Source: Candidatus Saccharimonadota bacterium
GTDB lineage: Bacteria > Patescibacteriota > Saccharimonadia > Saccharimonadales > Saccharimonadaceae
Length of the DNA stretch: 64,000 nucleotides
Assembly: GCA_017513905.1 (NCBI GenBank)
Contig: JAFWMR010000006.1
Coordinates: forward strand, 1 to 64,000
Direction: 5' to 3'
This document shows positions 26,202-32,056 of the stretch, in pieces; position 1 is the first letter of the stretch; every line of letters begins with the position of its first letter. The position numbers and the translations under genes were made by a program. Below the pieces are notes generated by a model, which ran no database searches, was not told the origin of the DNA, and saw nothing but the letters and a program-made list of their open reading frames with translations.

Positions 26202-26207
26202 ATGCTT

Positions 26208-28229
26208 ATGGCAAACATGTTTCAGGCCTTTTTGGACTGGGTAAATGGCGTCAAACCAGCTGTCACTGATACTGAGAAAATCATTGCCTCTCCTGATGGT
26301 GCCGTCAAACTCAAGCTCACCCTGCGTCAGGGGCATGTTTCTTATTCTGTTCTAAAAGGTGAAACTACACTTATTCGCGAATCGAAACTCGGTATAAAGG
26401 TCAAAGGTTCACCCGCACTTTCTGATCATCTATCTATTGTCCGTTCTACCGAAAAATCCGTCGGTGAAACATGGGAAACAGTCTGGGGCGAAGAACATTT
26501 CATCACCAACGCATACAATGAGTCCGCTTTCTACATGTCAGAGACTTCGAGCACCAAGCGTCTATTTACTTTACGTTTCCGCGTCTTCAACGATGGTGTC
26601 GCTTTCCGCTACGAGCTTCCGCCACAACCGGCGTTCTCACGCGTAGAGATCGAAGACGAGCTTACAGAATTTAATATCGATCTAAATGCCAATTCTTGGT
26701 CTATCCCGGCCTATCAGCCGGACCGCTACGAATACAATTACGAGAAAAAACCAGTATATGAGCTGGAAAAGTCCGTTCATACCCCCCTCACGATTGTTCT
26801 ACCCAATAAATATCACCTAGCTATTCATGAGGCCGCACTCTATAATTACGGCGAAATGTCTCTCAAGCTTGACGAGTGGAAGGCTTTGAAAAGCGATATC
26901 ACTCCTTTGTCGGACGGTATTAAAGCGCGTGTCGAGCTTCCATTCAATACACCGTGGCGTTTTGTCATGATTGCCGGCTCTCCGATTGGCCTCACCAAGA
27001 ACCATATGATGCTAAACCTCAACGACCCACCTTCAGAAGATTTCTCATGGGTCAAGCCAATCAAATTCCTCGGTATTTGGTGGGCAATGTATGTTGGCGA
27101 GTGGACCTGGGCATCTGGCCCACGTCACGGTGCTACTACCAGCCACGCTATCGAATACATCGACGCTTGCCGTCGTCTTGGTATAGGTGGCCTACTTCTC
27201 GAAGGTTGGAACGGCGGCTGGGATGGCGACTGGCTATTAAACGGCAAAACTACAGACTTTGTTCACCCTATGCCAGACTGTGATCTTCCAGGCATCGCTG
27301 AATATGCTCGCGCAAACGATATTGAAATCATTGGCCATCATGAGACCGTTGGTTTCGTCGACAATTATGAGTCCCAGCTAGAAGCCAGCTATAAGTATTA
27401 TTCCGATCTTGGGATCCATTATATCAAGCCTGGCTATGCCGGATCCATGATGTCCATCCAAGGCAAGAGGGAATTCCATCATTCTCAGCTTGGTGTCGAG
27501 CACTATCAAAAAGCACTCGAACTTGCCGCCAAATACCACATCTGTTTGGATGTTCACGAACCAATCAAAGGTACTGGCATCGAACGGACCTTCCCGAATC
27601 TTCTCACGCGCGAAGGTGCTCGCGGCCAAGAATATGAAGGAGGCGCACTCAGCCCATCCCATGCTTGTATTATCCCGTTCACCAGACTTCTTTCCGGACC
27701 TATGGACTATACGTCGGGTATTTTCGATATCACAAACACCACCAAGCGCATCGCGTCCACGCTTGCTCGCCAACTAGCTTTCTTTGTTACAATTCCTTCC
27801 GGTATGCAAATGGCAGCCGATCGTCCTCGCTTCTACGAAGAAGTTAACCCAGGTGCATACAAATTTATCCATGACGTTCCGGTCAACTGGGAGCACTCAG
27901 TTCCGCTCATGGGCGCCATCGGCGAATACTATGTTGTCGCTCGTGAGGAACGTGGCGGTCATAACTGGTTTGTTGGCGGGGTTACCAACGAAAACGCTCA
28001 CAAAGTCCGCGTCACTCTCGATTTCCTTGAAGAAGGGACCACCTACGAGGCTGAGATCTATCGCGATTCAGAGACCGCTCACTACCGCGACAATCCTCTC
28101 GACATTCGTATCGAAACTACAGATGTTACGAATAAGAACTTCATCGATATCTGGATGGCTCCTGGCGGTGGCTTCGCCATCTCCCTAAAGAAGATTGCTG
28201 ACGCGAACGACGAATCCAGACAGCAGTAG
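26208..28229 (+). CDS. Glycoside hydrolase family 97 enzyme
   Basis: A 673-residue GH97 protein, a family of alpha-glucosidases and alpha-galactosidases. The N-terminal beta-sandwich opens with IIASPDGAVKLKL, followed by the FRVFNDGVAFRYE pattern, the TIM barrel and a C-terminal beta domain (PSGMQMAADRPRFYEE). Catalytic-site motifs visible are GHHETVG, DVHEPIKGTG and TREGARGQEYE. The segment where retaining members carry an Asp nucleophile reads IKPGYAG, as in inverting SusB-type enzymes, so an inverting alpha-glucosidase is inferred. There is no signal peptide, so it should act in the cytoplasm on imported or stored glucan. Start 26208 is chosen from the -10 spacing. Confidence 0.88.
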   Translation: MANMFQAFLDWVNGVKPAVTDTEKIIASPDGAVKLKLTLRQGHVSYSVLKGETTLIRESKLGIKVKGSPALSDHLSIVRSTEKSVGETWETVWGEEHFITNAYNESAFYMSETSSTKRLFTLRFRVFNDGVAFRYELPPQPAFSRVEIEDELTEFNIDLNANSWSIPAYQPDRYEYNYEKKPVYELEKSVHTPLTIVLPNKYHLAIHEAALYNYGEMSLKLDEWKALKSDITPLSDGIKARVELPFNTPWRFVMIAGSPIGLTKNHMMLNLNDPPSEDFSWVKPIKFLGIWWAMYVGEWTWASGPRHGATTSHAIEYIDACRRLGIGGLLLEGWNGGWDGDWLLNGKTTDFVHPMPDCDLPGIAEYARANDIEIIGHHETVGFVDNYESQLEASYKYYSDLGIHYIKPGYAGSMMSIQGKREFHHSQLGVEHYQKALELAAKYHICLDVHEPIKGTGIERTFPNLLTREGARGQEYEGGALSPSHACIIPFTRLLSGPMDYTSGIFDITNTTKRIASTLARQLAFFVTIPSGMQMAADRPRFYEEVNPGAYKFIHDVPVNWEHSVPLMGAIGEYYVVAREERGGHNWFVGGVTNENAHKVRVTLDFLEEGTTYEAEIYRDSETAHYRDNPLDIRIETTDVTNKNFIDIWMAPGGGFAISLKKIADANDESRQQ

Positions 28230-28277: not shown

Positions 28278-28353
28278 ACGGGTGTAGCTCAGTTGGTAGA
28301 GCACTGGTCTCCAAAACCAGGTGTCGGGAGTTCAAGTCTCTCCACCCGTGCCA
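28278..28353 (+). tRNA. tRNA-Trp(CCA), CCA encoded
   Basis: A 76-nt cloverleaf: acceptor ACGGGTG with CACCCGT, D-arm GCTC/GAGC, anticodon loop CTCCAAA giving CCA, T-loop TTCAAGT, discriminator G and encoded CCA. TG-G-TAATAT (28247-28255) may be its -10. The last 17 bases plus TTA recur 141 bp downstream. Confidence 0.95.
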
Positions 28354-28356
28354 TTA
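28337..28356 (+). repeat. Direct repeat, copy 1: tRNA-Trp 3' end
   Basis: TCTCTCCACCCGTGCCATTA, comprising the T-arm 3' strand, acceptor 3' strand, CCA and three further bases. It is identical to 28478-28497. Confidence 0.95.
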
Positions 28357-28361
28357 GAATA

Positions 28362-28438
28362 GGCGGAGAGACGCAGAACTCGTAGAGTTCAAACCGCCAA
28401 GGAGGCGAGAGAATATCTAGAACTCGTTATAGATATTC
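28362..28438 (+). ncRNA. Structured repeat element, copy 1
   Basis: A 77-nt element about three-quarters identical to 29490-29564. Closing pairs GGCGG (28362-28366) and CCGCC (28394-28398) are GGTGG and CCACC in the other copy, a compensatory change. Inner hairpin GAACTC-GTA-GAGTTC and a second hairpin GAATATCTA with TAGATATTC are perfect here. It lies between the tRNA-Trp 3' end and its duplicate and would be transcribed with the tRNA. Function unknown. Confidence 0.6.
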
Positions 28439-28477
28439 CGAGACGACGCAGGCGAGAAGTTCGCGAAGCGAACGCCT

Positions 28478-28497
28478 TCTCTCCACCCGTGCCATTA
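28478..28497 (+). repeat. Direct repeat, copy 2: duplicated tRNA-Trp 3' end
   Basis: Exact 20-bp copy of 28337-28356. Its TCTCTCC can also pair with GGAGAGA at 28365-28371, enclosing the whole intervening element. Confidence 0.95.
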
Positions 28498-28518
28498 TAG
28501 CCATTTAGGCTATTTTTT
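28497..28518 (+). terminator. Terminator after the tRNA-Trp region
   Basis: ATAGCC (28497-28502), loop ATTTA, GGCTAT (28508-28513), then a T-run to 28518. Confidence 0.8.
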
Positions 28519-28526
28519 GTTATAAT
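28518..28526 (+). promoter_or_regulatory. Extended -10 of the 28557 gene
   Basis: TG-T-TATAAT (28518-28526) begins in the terminator T-run. The leader is about 25 nt, with AGGA (28543-28546). Confidence 0.6.
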
Positions 28527-28556
28527 AATCTTAACCATAAACAGGAACACTTTCTA

Positions 28557-29300
28557 ATGCAACAGATAAACCAAGAAGACATGGATATGGAAATGGCCAA
28601 CACCTCCACATCCGCCGGTAAAAAAGAATCAAAAGGCATGATGATGGGCATGATAATGTGCTCTGTGCTTGCTATTGTCGGTATTGGCTTCGGCGTCTAT
28701 GGCATGACTAGAAAACCAGAAGAAAAACCGGCAGGTGACATAGCTAATGCAGAGCTAGAGACCGAGCTTTCCAATATTAAACAAAAGTATGCCGTACTTC
28801 AAGATTATATTAAAAAGCTCGAAGCCTCTGGAACTGAAACTCCGGAAGAAGCTAAATCCGCTTCTGAATCTAGATCGACGAACGACATCGAATATGCGGA
28901 CAACAGATACATTTATATTAATGACTGGGGCATTAAAATTAAACTTCCGGAAGAGTTATCGCTGGTCACCTATTCATACGATTATGGTGATAATACAGTC
29001 AATGAAGCAGGCGATAATGCCAGCCTCTGTATATCTGGTAGTGAAGATAACAGTCTTTATGCCTTTTCATCAGTCAGAAAGGCTGGCCCTGGCTTAGTTT
29101 GCATTACGCGTAACTCTCGGCAAAGAGAGCATCTCGTAGACGCAGTAGAGATCTTCCATAACGATAGTGGTTGGTACTATCTCTCTGGAGCCCAAGCGTT
29201 CCGTACTGAAGAAAATACAATGGCTAGAAGTTACGAAATCAATATCATGGATTTATTTAATAAGCATTTCTCTGATCCGTCTAACTATTCTGCCATATAG
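28557..29300 (+). CDS. Single-span membrane protein, unknown function
   Basis: I do not recognise this 247-residue protein. It has a short methionine-rich cytoplasmic N-terminus, one hydrophobic helix at about 29-50 and a likely coiled coil at about 64-92 (ELETELSNIKQKYAVLQDYI). An extracellular domain of about 140 residues follows, with two cysteines (CISGSED, CITRN). This layout (tail, anchor, coil, small outer domain) recurs in the 37469 gene of this window. It lies between the two copies of the structured repeat, with its own promoter and terminator. Confidence 0.75.
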   Translation: MQQINQEDMDMEMANTSTSAGKKESKGMMMGMIMCSVLAIVGIGFGVYGMTRKPEEKPAGDIANAELETELSNIKQKYAVLQDYIKKLEASGTETPEEAKSASESRSTNDIEYADNRYIYINDWGIKIKLPEELSLVTYSYDYGDNTVNEAGDNASLCISGSEDNSLYAFSSVRKAGPGLVCITRNSRQREHLVDAVEIFHNDSGWYYLSGAQAFRTEENTMARSYEINIMDLFNKHFSDPSNYSAI

Positions 29301-29312
29301 AAAATCTAGAGA

Positions 29313-29338
29313 GAGGAGCCTCACGGCTCCTTTTTTTG
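29313..29338 (+). terminator. Terminator of the 28557 gene
   Basis: AGGAGCC (29314-29320), loop TCAC, GGCTCCT (29325-29331), seven T's. The TCAC loop is the same as in the tuf terminator. Confidence 0.9.
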
Positions 29339-29447
29339 ACTTTTTCTACGCATCTTACAAATCGCACCGCCGCTACCTAAACCATTAAGAATATATCGGA
29401 ACGAATTATAGTTGCAACTTCTTTCACTATGGTGTGCCAATTAGAAC
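29339..29447. other. Intergenic segment with no gene recognised
   Basis: No coding frame, tRNA or clear promoter is seen in this stretch. It ends at a terminator-like hairpin, so a short transcript could end there. Confidence 0.4.
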
Positions 29448-29472
29448 AAAAATACCATTCAAGGTATTTTTT
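29448..29472 (+). terminator. Terminator-like hairpin before repeat copy 2
   Basis: AAAAATACC (29448-29456), loop ATTCAA, GGTATTTTTT (29463-29472). Confidence 0.7.
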
Positions 29473-29480
29473 GTTTTAAT
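29472..29480 (+). promoter_or_regulatory. Possible extended -10 upstream of repeat copy 2
   Basis: TG-T-TTTAAT (29472-29480) about 9 nt before GGTGG of the element, in the same T-run-plus-promoter arrangement as at 28513-28526. Supports independent transcription of the element. Confidence 0.35.
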
Positions 29481-29489
29481 AAGTCATTC

Positions 29490-29564
29490 GGTGGAGAGAC
29501 GCAAGACTATAGAATTCAAGCCACCAAGAGAACGAGAGGATGGCTGAACTTGGTATAGATATTC
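29490..29564 (+). ncRNA. Structured repeat element, copy 2
   Basis: A 75-nt relative of 28362-28438. The outer GGTGG (29490-29494) and CCACC (29521-29525) pairs are conserved with covariation, as are GGAGAGACGCA, TTCAA, CGAGAG and the terminal TATAGATATTC. The 5' arm of the second hairpin is not conserved (GGATGGCT). No tRNA adjoins this copy. Confidence 0.55.
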
Positions 29565-29581: not shown

Positions 29582-32056
29582 TTACCAACTAATACTAGTT
29601 TCCCCAATGATGCTAGTTATTATTCTTCTTGCATCTCTCACATTTACTCCGCCGCTTCTGTCCACATCCGCCAGCTTTTGTTCAAGACCGCTTAAAGTAT
29701 CTCCTCCGATAATCGAATTTATTACCTTCCTTGCATCCCGCACATTCACACTACTATCCGTATTCGCATCTCCAGCATACGCCAAAACAATCACTGCTCC
29801 ACTTGTTTCATTTAAGGTATATCCTCGATGGTTAGTTCCAACCGCCGTACTCGGATCAACTAGCGTCCAAGTTGTTCCGTTGTCCGTCGAAACCAAAACC
29901 TTGCATGCTAGTTCGCTCATTACAGTAAATGAGTTATCTGAAACGATATTGATCGTCGCACCACCACCAGTCAAATCCGTAATCTCAAGCTGCGGTTCTG
30001 GCTCCGGATCGGGCTCCGGTTCTGGTTCACTCGTGTCGATCGTGAAAGATGCAACTAGAATCTTTAATGGCCACGTATATATATTGTATGTCAATCCGGA
30101 TTGCTCACCAACACCGTTAGTTACTATAATTCTTGAGGTATCAAACGAGGCCCCATTGGTCTTTATCGTCGTCCCAGAGACCGTATAATTAGAAGTCGAA
30201 GCAGAGATTATGGGCAAATTTTTCACTTGCTGTCCATTGGAATTATATTTCAACGCTACATAATTATCATCAAGCTTTGTAAAACTGAGCAGATTACTAT
30301 TTGTCGAGAATCCGCATTCAGAGAAACTCGTATTAAACCCAGTAAATACAAATGCTGGCCGGACGACACATCCCGCAGATGATGAAGGATAGAGGATGTT
30401 GTAAGTTCCATCCTGTAGCGTGATTGTTGTTCCATTCTGCGTTTTAGTCGTTGAAGTTATGTTGTCGGCCACATTATTTAGATCAGAAGAATAAGAAACG
30501 ATCCGTTTGCCTTCCTTGTCAATCATCACTCCTGTATTTTTCGCTGATACGCCGGAAGCCAGATGTAATAAAACATTCGAGCCCACCGGTAATATCACAG
30601 TATTCGCAGAAGTATTAAATGATGCTAAATCATACTGTATTCCGTCAGAAATATTCTGCCATACATTATTATATGCATCAAAGTATTCCATGTTTGACAA
30701 CGCTATTCCATCAAAATAAAAACTCACTACGCTATTCGGTTCACCATTCGCGATCATGAACGTAGCATCATCGAATGAAGTTAAAATTGCCTCTGCGTCA
30801 TTTCCGTTGCTTTTTGCTGAGACATTCCCCAAAAAGCGCACATTATGTACGGTATTTGTATCTTGATAAATCAACGGCTTCATCGAACCACGAACTTGGT
30901 AAATTTCATCTACTTCCTTCGAATATAACTCATTGCCAAGATTGAACGCCCAGGAATTAATGTCGCTGACGATATTATAGAATGAAGACTTAGTTACTGC
31001 GTCGGAGTTAACTAACCAGCCTGAATCCCAACTCGTCCCAGTAGATGGATGCATATAAGTAAAATACGACAGCCGCTTCATCCCAAATGCAAGGTTGTTA
31101 GATACTTGATACATCACCTGTGATTTTGAATTAGCATCAACATACCAGTCGTGTAGCGCCACAATATTCATTGGCACAGCTTCGATGTTTTGATTGCGCT
31201 TTGCTTTGTAATGATATAAGAGCGAGCGCAGATTCGCATAATACAAATCACGGTCAGTATAATCATTGTAAGTTACATTTAATGAATCTTTTGCCTTTGG
31301 ATAATAATCAACCGACAAAGTTCGTACGGCGGAACTGTCTAAAAATAACGATAAATAATCTTCGTAAGCCGTTAAGTCTAAATTACCCTGCGCATCGCAC
31401 CCGCTCGCAGACTTGTATTCAAGACAATCCACTGGTGCATAATTTGGGAATAAGTTCACATAAGTGTCTCGCATCGGGTCAACCGAATAAAAGTTCGCCA
31501 CTGCTGGCGTCGTAATATCAAGACCAACGGAAACTCCTGTAATTGAATGTTTTGCTGGTTCGTCGGTAATATCGTAGCCAATGACGTTTTTAAAATCCAT
31601 GTTCGGTTTTAAATATGTATCATAAAAACTTTTTACCGTACTAATACCCGATTGGCGTCCCAACTCAGCATTGTTGCCATGAAAAATATAAGTTTTTAAA
31701 TTATAAGAATCCAAAATTGATGCTGCCGATGAATTCGAATCCGCTGTCCACTGGCTATCATAAGAATCACGAAATGGCGCAATTGTAAAACCAGAATTTG
31801 CAATTATACTCGCAATATTTGACGGATTTGCAGTAATTTGTTGGCCTGATGGACCCCAATAATACTGTATTTCAAAATGTTTTCCGTACTTATCTAGCGC
31901 CGCAGATTTTGCCGCATTAGTTGACGCTGCTCTTGCTATACGATGACTATCAGCAGCGGTTAATGCCAGAACGGTTGCCACCGCACCAATAACAATCAAC
32001 CCAGATAATAATCGTTTTTTTCTAAACGAAGTATTATTAATATTTTCAAAAGGCAT
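29582..32056 (-). CDS. Secreted TIM-barrel-like protein with type I dockerin
   Basis: An 824-residue exported protein. A signal or anchor helix lies at about 15-34. The N-terminal catalytic-type region (about 55-390) resembles a glycosidase-like barrel with DITDEP near residue 165 and SVDYYPKAKD; I cannot assign a GH family. Beta-rich regions follow, then an acidic Pro-Glu linker near 675-688. The C-terminus (about 759-820) is a type I dockerin: GDANTDSSVNVRDARKVINS and ADVDRSGGVNVRDARRIITS are the two calcium-binding F-hand repeats, each with the Asp/Asn ladder. Dockerins bind cohesins in cellulosome-type complexes; no cohesin is seen in this window. The ATG lies 6 nt after a -10 box and is leaderless. 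Confidence 0.88.
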   Translation of the reverse strand: MPFENINNTSFRKKRLLSGLIVIGAVATVLALTAADSHRIARAASTNAAKSAALDKYGKHFEIQYYWGPSGQQITANPSNIASIIANSGFTIAPFRDSYDSQWTADSNSSAASILDSYNLKTYIFHGNNAELGRQSGISTVKSFYDTYLKPNMDFKNVIGYDITDEPAKHSITGVSVGLDITTPAVANFYSVDPMRDTYVNLFPNYAPVDCLEYKSASGCDAQGNLDLTAYEDYLSLFLDSSAVRTLSVDYYPKAKDSLNVTYNDYTDRDLYYANLRSLLYHYKAKRNQNIEAVPMNIVALHDWYVDANSKSQVMYQVSNNLAFGMKRLSYFTYMHPSTGTSWDSGWLVNSDAVTKSSFYNIVSDINSWAFNLGNELYSKEVDEIYQVRGSMKPLIYQDTNTVHNVRFLGNVSAKSNGNDAEAILTSFDDATFMIANGEPNSVVSFYFDGIALSNMEYFDAYNNVWQNISDGIQYDLASFNTSANTVILPVGSNVLLHLASGVSAKNTGVMIDKEGKRIVSYSSDLNNVADNITSTTKTQNGTTITLQDGTYNILYPSSSAGCVVRPAFVFTGFNTSFSECGFSTNSNLLSFTKLDDNYVALKYNSNGQQVKNLPIISASTSNYTVSGTTIKTNGASFDTSRIIVTNGVGEQSGLTYNIYTWPLKILVASFTIDTSEPEPEPDPEPEPQLEITDLTGGGATINIVSDNSFTVMSELACKVLVSTDNGTTWTLVDPSTAVGTNHRGYTLNETSGAVIVLAYAGDANTDSSVNVRDARKVINSIIGGDTLSGLEQKLADVDRSGGVNVRDARRIITSIIGETSISW

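What the first reader, a model, noticed from the sequence alone, without database searches (positions are those of the whole stretch)
28362..29564. Two-copy structured RNA element with compensatory base changes
Elements at 28362-28438 and 29490-29564, same strand, share GGAGAGACGCA, TTCAA, CGAGAG and TATAGATATTC at fixed spacing. The outer stem is GGCGG/CCGCC in one and GGTGG/CCACC in the other, a pair-preserving change, which indicates selection on RNA structure. Copy 1 follows tRNA-Trp; copy 2 has a possible own -10 (29472-29480). The single gene between them has its own promoter and terminator. I match this to no known family with confidence; its first half recalls the glycine aptamer core but the rest does not. 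Only one stem shows covariation, so the evidence is thin.
Basis: partly seen in the sequence, partly recalled or inferred. Interest (0 to 1): 0.7.

Follow-up and report, generated by a model that had tools for sequence, protein, structure and literature searches.

The report
Folded-DNA insertion elements in tRNA genes
The supposed RNA element is one intact copy and one decayed copy of a large, apparently undescribed family of tiny gene-less DNA insertion elements of Saccharibacteria that fold as single-stranded DNA and mostly nest at the 3' ends of tRNA genes, each one tailored to the tRNA it sits in.

Summary
The sequence similarity is real; the RNA reading is probably wrong. Copy 1 is the inner part of a 124-bp insertion (28354-28477) directly after tRNA-Trp, followed by a 20-bp exact duplicate of the tRNA's 3' end. 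Homologues occur in 148 of 174 genomes of the genus, up to 25 per genome. Of 130 examined, 109 lie directly 3' of a tRNA (17 isotypes); the downstream tRNA copy and the upstream arm match that element's own tRNA. The fold is a cloverleaf whose long arm holds two tandem G.A motifs; all 23 of its pairs covary. It looks like single-stranded DNA, not RNA: G.T is no commoner than A.C in its stems (18:18; tRNA stems 131:9), and loops are DNA-stable types (GNA, GNYA, TTTA, CTTG), almost never GNRA. Bare cores also sit in promoter -35 boxes. Copy 2 is a relic; the reported compensatory stem is not the conserved pairing. Best reading: non-autonomous elements moved as folded ssDNA by an unidentified enzyme acting in trans. 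They resemble REP/IS200-605 ends and integron attC sites but meet neither definition.

The parts
28278..28353 (+). tRNA-Trp (CCA), target gene of the insertion; intact, encoded CCA at 28351-28353
   Evidence: ARAGORN; Rfam RF00005 69.7 bits
28337..28356 (+). proximal copy of the 20-bp direct repeat (T-stem 3' strand to CCATTA)
   Evidence: the repeat finder D3
28354..28477 (+). intact cloverleaf element (copy 1), the unit inserted between the two tRNA 3'-end copies; unlike most family members it lacks the leading terminator-like hairpin P0
28362..28371 (+). P1 5' arm GGCGGAGAGA, complementary (9 of 10) to the T-stem/acceptor 3' strand of tRNA-Trp; pairs with 28478-28487
   Evidence: sequence; own-tRNA test
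28376..28390 (+). P2 hairpin GAACTC-GTA-GAGTTC (GNA loop); its 3' strand GAGTTCA copies the tRNA T-stem 5' strand and T-loop
28394..28454 (+). P3-core-P4-core-P3' arm: P3 (28395-28398 with 28451-28454), tandem G.A motifs (28402-28403 with 28445-28446; 28407-28408 with 28440-28441), P4 hairpin 28411-28423 / 28426-28438
   Evidence: R1 match 28392-28457, 78.7 bits; covariation; GA.GA columns 104/110 each
28458..28477 (+). P5 hairpin with GAA loop (GTTCGC-GAA-GCGAAC at 28459-28473)
28478..28497 (+). distal duplicate of the tRNA-Trp 3' end (P1 3' arm at 28478-28487), CCA at 28492-28494
   Evidence: the repeat finder D3; own-tRNA test
28497..28519 (+). terminator-like hairpin plus T-run after the distal tRNA copy (ATAGCCATTTAGGCTATTTTTTG)
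   Evidence: sequence, (D2)
29430..29475 (+). decayed tRNA-Trp 3'-end junction (gtGCCAATTAGAAC) followed by a P0-like terminator hairpin; left part of the relic unit
   Evidence: sequence comparison with 28349-28361; (D2)
29490..29564 (+). copy 2: relic of a second tRNA-Trp unit; its guide arm GGTGGAGAGAC is a perfect complement of tRNA-Trp GTCTCTCCACC, but P2, P4, P3' and P5 are degenerate or absent
28557..29300 (+). 247-aa ORF (one predicted membrane segment by eye, no Pfam match) lying between the intact element and the relic; no evidence that it is cargo

Best explanation
Copy 1 is an intact, and copy 2 a decayed, member of a family of non-autonomous DNA insertion elements of Saccharibacteria that act as folded single-stranded DNA of the tRNA-sense strand. 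Shown: a conserved folding core (P3, two tandem G.A motifs, P4) followed by hairpin P5; insertion at tRNA T-loops (boundary near A58), at CC^ACCA of tRNA-Ala genes and at TTG^ACA of promoter -35 boxes; in the T-loop class the unit is preceded by an arm that is the reverse complement of that tRNA's T-arm and is followed by an exact duplicate of A58-CCA, so the tRNA stays intact; units stack at one tRNA, the intact one next to the tRNA and decayed ones distal. Inferred: the element is copied or excised as single-stranded DNA (replication fork or DNA taken up in transformation), folds into the cloverleaf, pairs its T-arm-complementary arm with the target, and is joined at the T-loop by an enzyme supplied in trans. 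The resident Xer-type tyrosine recombinase is the only candidate found in every genome examined (my estimate 0.4); a HUH enzyme of the TnpA-REP / IS200 kind is next (0.25).
For: Family: 148/174 genomes of the genus, up to 25 copies; other families and classes of the phylum. 109/130 elements within 260 nt 3' of a same-strand tRNA, 17 isotypes, distances clustered at 67-89 nt or exactly -3. Target matching: distal copy fits its own tRNA, mean score 32.2 against 13.8 +/- 3.3 for other isotypes (41/47 beat all); guide arm 14.9 against 10.0 +/- 2.2. Duplicated block starts at A58-60 and ends exactly at CCA in most. Covariation: 23/23 pairs, 538 double-change cells. DNA signature: G.T 18 = A.C 18 against tRNA 131:9; P2 loops GNA 77/97, P5 GAA 26, TTTA 18, GNYA tetraloops 24 against GNRA 1 over P2 and P5, P4 TTTA 42 / CTTG 38. 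Insertion: a related tRNA-Val locus without element (L450) beside filled loci L442-444 and L447; bare cores in -35 boxes with 17-nt spacers (L405, L415, L231, L485) and in a tRNA-Gln-like T-loop (L081). Stacking polarity.
Against: No transposition or excision was observed, and no autonomous relative was found. No dedicated integrase: 12 of 16 element-bearing genomes hold a single PF00589 protein, which element-free genomes also have. HUH Y1 family (PF01797) matches in only 3 of 26 genomes, partial or broken. Some elements persist at syntenic tRNAs (tRNA-Val), so many may be old or immobile. The DNA argument rests on substitution and loop statistics, not on an experiment. The guide arm could be a passive foldback duplication. 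The core alignment was fitted to its model, which raises the percentage paired (not the G.T/A.C ratio).
Confidence: 0.7

Rival explanations
1. A structured non-coding RNA or cis-regulatory RNA processed with tRNA transcripts.
For: Strong base-pair covariation; location next to tRNA genes; copy 1 has no terminator-like hairpin between tRNA-Trp and the element, so it could be co-transcribed.
Against: No excess of G.T over A.C in stems, unlike tRNA stems in the same loci; loops are DNA-stable types and almost never GNRA, never UNCG; most units follow a terminator-like hairpin; cores lie inside -35 boxes; stem P1 simply follows whichever tRNA is present; no Rfam match.
Confidence: 0.08
2. Integron-like cassettes: the cloverleaf is an attC-like folded site, the tRNA T-loop acts as the attI-like site, and a tyrosine recombinase (resident Xer) inserts units next to the tRNA. 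(A specific version of the best explanation.)
For: Unit geometry equals a cassette with its folded site; newest-looking unit is tRNA-proximal; T-loop-to-CCA identity block is typical of tyrosine integrases (T-loop integration known for phage Ms6, PMC1762012); one Xer in all 26 genomes.
Against: The Xer scores as XerA/XerD-like and well below the integron-integrase cut-off (130.8 against 265 bits); no fixed R/L boxes; nearly all units carry no gene; Xer is equally present in element-free genomes.
Confidence: 0.4
3. REP/IS200-IS605-like non-autonomous elements moved by a HUH single-strand transposase. (Another specific version of the best explanation.)
For: GTAG 5' of the imperfect hairpin in 89/110, as REPs carry GT[AG]G (PMC6006769); strand-specific fold with conserved mismatches and TTTA loops, as in REPs (PMC8266576); bare cores inserted after a short motif; dispersed REP-like relatives after terminator T-runs in G574/G534.
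Against: PF01797 matches in only 3 of 26 genomes, partial or broken; the Y2 family search was uninformative because its control rang nowhere; basal stem is interrupted by two tandem G.A motifs; REPs are not known to carry a ~17-nt tRNA-matched arm.
Confidence: 0.25
4. Passive products: template-switch or foldback duplications of tRNA 3' ends that accumulate by slippage and decay, without a dedicated recombinase.
For: Other, unrelated foldback duplications of the tRNA-Trp 3' end exist (L355, L357, L359, L366, L373, L375, L376); arrays and partial units are common.
Against: One conserved core shared across 17 tRNA isotypes, across classes of the phylum and at non-tRNA sites; sharp boundaries at A58 and CCA; strong selection on the fold.
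Confidence: 0.12

Closest known systems
REP sequences / TnpA-REP (RAYT) and IS200/IS605 subterminal hairpins
   Same: Strand-specific folded ssDNA hairpin with conserved mismatches, GTAG 5' of the hairpin (89/110), TTTA-type loops, non-autonomous dispersed copies, short insertion motif.
   Different: No TnpA-Y1 gene in most genomes; two tandem G.A motifs, P5 and cloverleaf arms; tRNA-matched arm and T-loop targeting.
Integron attC sites and gene cassettes
   Same: Folded single strand, insertion next to a fixed site, stacked units with apparent polarity, complementary outer arms.
   Different: No R/L boxes, no IntI (TIGR02249 below cut-off), site is a tRNA T-loop, conserved middle and variable ends (the reverse of attC), almost no cargo.
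tRNA-integrated elements of tyrosine integrases using the T-loop (e.g. phage Ms6)
   Same: Identity block from T-loop to the 3' end, tRNA kept intact, duplicated tRNA 3' end.
   Different: Units of about 125-190 bp without integrase; one element family uses 17 isotypes; carries a T-arm-complementary arm.
   Same: A GGAGAG-like word only.
   Different: No covariance-model match even at E = 10; the changes point to DNA.

Membership tests
REP sequences (TnpA-REP / RAYT) | GT[AG]G tetranucleotide 0-2 nt 5' of the hairpin foot (PMC6006769) | tested here: met
   GTAG in 89 of 110 cores, directly 5' of the imperfect G.A-containing stem
REP sequences (TnpA-REP / RAYT) | Fully paired basal stem of 7-20 nt, loop 2-5 nt, total 21-65 nt | tested here: not met
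   Basal part interrupted by two invariant tandem G.A motifs; core about 66 nt plus P5 and further arms
REP sequences (TnpA-REP / RAYT) | Y1 HUH transposase gene in the genome | tested here: not met
   PF01797: any match in 3 of 26 genomes, partial or broken
Integron attC | Folded single strand recombines, with strand preference | tested here: inconclusive
   Sequence statistics support a folded top strand; recombination not tested
Integron attC | R and L boxes with conserved AAC/GTT core | tested here: not met
   Outer stem sequence follows the host tRNA and has no constant box
Integron attC | Integron integrase IntI | tested here: not met
   Xer proteins score 74.5-130.8 bits against a cut-off of 265
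tRNA-integrated element of a tyrosine integrase | Identity block spanning T-loop to tRNA 3' end | tested here: met
   Starts at A58-60, ends at CCA
tRNA-integrated element of a tyrosine integrase | Integrase gene carried by the element | tested here: not met
   Units are about 125-190 bp without ORF; no extra PF00589 gene in 12 of 16 bearing genomes
Structured RNA family (Rfam, incl. RF00504) | Covariance-model match above the gathering score | tested here: not met
   Window and 15 homologous loci: tRNA only
Structured RNA in general | Helices tolerate G-U wobble | tested here: not met
   P3+P4 G.T 18 against A.C 18; tRNA control 131 against 9

The most novel reading that the evidence does not exclude
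A DNA-guided insertion system: the element carries a ~17-nt reverse complement of its target tRNA's T-arm that, in folded single-stranded DNA, bridges both sides of the insertion point and directs a trans-acting recombinase to that tRNA, so a single element family can be retargeted to every tRNA gene by changing its guide arm.
Probability: 0.25. Interest if true: 0.95.

Novelty: new variant of a known kind. Interest (0 to 1): 0.78.

Why it matters
Saccharibacteria have small genomes, yet 85% of the genomes of this genus carry these elements, up to 25 each, mostly at tRNA genes that they leave intact. If the reading holds, they are a new class of folded-ssDNA mobile element with arms tailored to their tRNA targets, they explain clusters of tRNA 3'-end duplicates and probably some assembly breaks at tRNAs in these genomes, and they offer natural landing sites for genetics in an experimentally difficult phylum. 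They also show how helix covariation can mislead: without checking wobble tolerance and loop type, a DNA fold looks like a riboswitch.

Tried and rejected
Glycine riboswitch or another Rfam family: no match, also permissively. Phage or plasmid origin: no covariance-model hit in pattern-matched viral contigs, no blastn match in phage or plasmid collections. Dedicated tyrosine integrase: absent in most bearing genomes. Y1 HUH transposase: absent in most; Y2: uninformative, as the control rang nowhere. Reverse transcriptase: in 9 of 20 genomes, with and without elements, and absent from G000, G184, G211, G164 and G193, so not required. ORF 28557-29300 as cassette cargo: no Pfam match, no support. 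Four paper searches on tRNA integration, CPR or Saccharibacteria mobile elements and palindromic repeats found no description of such elements; subscription journals and preprints were not searched. An autonomous version in the other Patescibacteria loci: only ordinary genes seen in the one locus where ORFs were listed (L468).

Full report
OBSERVATION. The two similar stretches exist, but the unit is larger. After tRNA-Trp (28278-28353) there is a 124-bp insert (28354-28477), and then an exact 20-bp duplicate of the tRNA 3' end (28337-28356 = 28478-28497). The duplicate is part of the fold: GGCGGAGAGA (28362-28371) pairs with TCTCTCCACC (28478-28487). Copy 2 has a guide arm perfectly complementary to tRNA-Trp, but its P2 and P4 arms no longer match and the rest is lost; the covariance model does not report it even with filters off, and the own genome has a single intact element.

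FAMILY. A DNA search of 100 relatives gave clear homologues, each beside a different tRNA gene. A 66-position model of the core finds it in 148 of 174 genomes of the genus, up to 25 copies each, in further genera of the family and, with weaker scores, in other families and classes of the phylum. In named public genomes the confident hits are Saccharibacteria, several of them from rumen or gut samples. Pattern-matched viral contigs held no true copy, and the phage and plasmid collections held no blastn match.

ANATOMY. Usual unit, 5' to 3': [CCA of the tRNA] - P0, a terminator-like hairpin (absent in the window copy) - guide arm, the reverse complement of that tRNA's T-arm - GNA loop - copy of the T-stem 5' strand ending TTCG or TTCA - core arm P3, GGAG-N-CGAG / CGAG-N-CGAC (two tandem G.A motifs), P4 - P5 hairpin - duplicate of the tRNA from A58 to CCA. 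Predicted folds are cloverleaves. Of 130 elements 109 lie within 260 nt 3' of a same-strand tRNA, with 17 isotypes represented; distances cluster at 67-89 nt (T-loop class) and at exactly -3 (tRNA-Ala class, site CC^ACCA). The remaining 21 are truncated contigs, array members and non-tRNA sites.

TARGET MATCHING. In 47 loci the downstream copy matches its own tRNA far better than other isotypes (32.2 against 13.8 +/- 3.3; 41/47 beat all others) and the guide arm complements its own tRNA better (14.9 against 10.0 +/- 2.2). L015 and L016, near-identical elements at tRNA-Val in two species with different acceptor stems, each carry their own version. The duplicated block starts at A58-60 and in most complete cases ends exactly at CCA.

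DNA, NOT RNA. All 23 core pairs show double changes, with 538 double-change cells and no shuffle reaching the observed values. Yet G.T pairs are no commoner than A.C mismatches in P3+P4 (18 and 18), while acceptor and T stems of tRNAs in the same loci show 131 and 9 (Fisher p = 9e-9). Most of the remaining G.T pairs lie at a single position beside a G.A motif. P2 loops are GNA in 77 of 97; P5 loops are GAA, TTTA and GNYA. Over P2 and P5, tetraloops of the GNNA type have a pyrimidine at the third position in 24 of 25, so they are not GNRA. P4 loops are TTTA and CTTG. GNA and GNNA loops closed by C-G are known stable DNA loops (own knowledge; the GCGAAGC mini-hairpin is treated as extraordinarily stable in PMC10527192). 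The motifs lie on the tRNA-sense strand, so that strand is the one under selection.

INSERTION. Compared with an element-free relative (L450, G151), syntenic tRNA-Val loci L442, L443, L444 and L447 contain the unit between the tRNA and its downstream sequence; L449 and L453 keep only a P0-like hairpin. Bare core+P5 units, without P0, P1 and P2, sit in a tRNA-Gln-like T-loop (L081) and in four -35 boxes (L405, L415, L231, L485), where TTG^ACN with a 17-nt spacer is restored on the right side. Where several units stack, the decayed or truncated one is distal (window, L102, L113, L126, L134, L447), as expected if new units enter next to the tRNA.

MECHANISM. Shown: fold, strand, target matching, boundaries, stacking. 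Inferred: mobilisation as ssDNA and joining by a trans-acting enzyme. All 26 genomes tested have a Xer-type tyrosine recombinase, and 12 of the 16 bearing genomes have no other PF00589 protein. The Xer is XerA/XerD-like, not an integron integrase. Y1 transposases are nearly absent and reverse transcriptases are not required. I favour Xer acting on the folded strand (about 0.4), then a HUH enzyme supplied by a mobile element (about 0.25); many copies may be immobile relics. Whether the guide arm directs insertion or only reflects it is open.

COMPARISON. REP sequences share GTAG (89/110), folded strand, mismatches and TTTA loops (PMC6006769, PMC8266576), but lack the partner enzyme here and have no tRNA-matched arm. 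Integron attC sites share single-strand folding and cassette-like stacking (PMC11641012), but neither boxes nor IntI are present. T-loop integration by tyrosine integrases is known (Ms6, PMC1762012), but those elements carry an integrase. No paper found describes this family; the library lacks most subscription journals.

VERDICT. A real, selected fold; DNA rather than RNA; a widespread element family that I could not match to anything described; enzyme and activity unproven.

Noticed in passing
L355, L357, L359, L366, L373, L375, L376 (downstream of tRNA-Trp, about 1577-1800): A second, smaller foldback type at tRNA-Trp: GGAACTCGCG-AACGTCCC-AAGGGG..CGCGAGTTC followed by a tRNA 3' copy, resembling a tRNA minihelix; tandem in L376.
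   Followed up: no
L405, L415, L231, L485 (around the R1 match): Bare core elements inserted exactly at TTG^ACN of promoter -35 boxes, restoring the box, with a 17-nt spacer to the -10.
   Followed up: partly
L081:1910-2080 (G038:C5): Core inserted in the T-loop of a tRNA-Gln-like gene with an 8-nt anticodon loop, followed by an intact tRNA-Gln(CTG)-like copy in tandem.
   Followed up: partly
L477:4015-4077, L478:4023-4085: In another family of the phylum the core overlaps, on the opposite strand, the 5' acceptor of tRNA-Ala or tRNA-Trp.
   Followed up: no
L467-L474 (G574, G534): Dispersed REP-like relatives (ATTTGCGAAGTGAGTGAG...) directly after terminator T-runs in another patescibacterial family.
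   Followed up: partly
G208:C3, G042:C16, G191:C17, G033:C13, G180:C23: Contigs end inside tRNA-Trp, as if repeats at tRNAs break assemblies.
   Followed up: no
window 29582-32056 (-): 824-aa secreted-looking protein ending in a dockerin-like repeat (DANTDSSVNVRDARKVINSIIGG...DVDRSGGVNVRDARRIITSIIG).
   Followed up: no
window 26202-28229 (+): Glycoside hydrolase family 97 gene directly upstream of tRNA-Trp (PF10566), unusual for a reduced genome.
   Followed up: no
L438-L441: Reverse transcriptases of about 330-410 aa in 9 of 20 genomes, possibly of diversity-generating retroelements; not linked to the elements.
   Followed up: no
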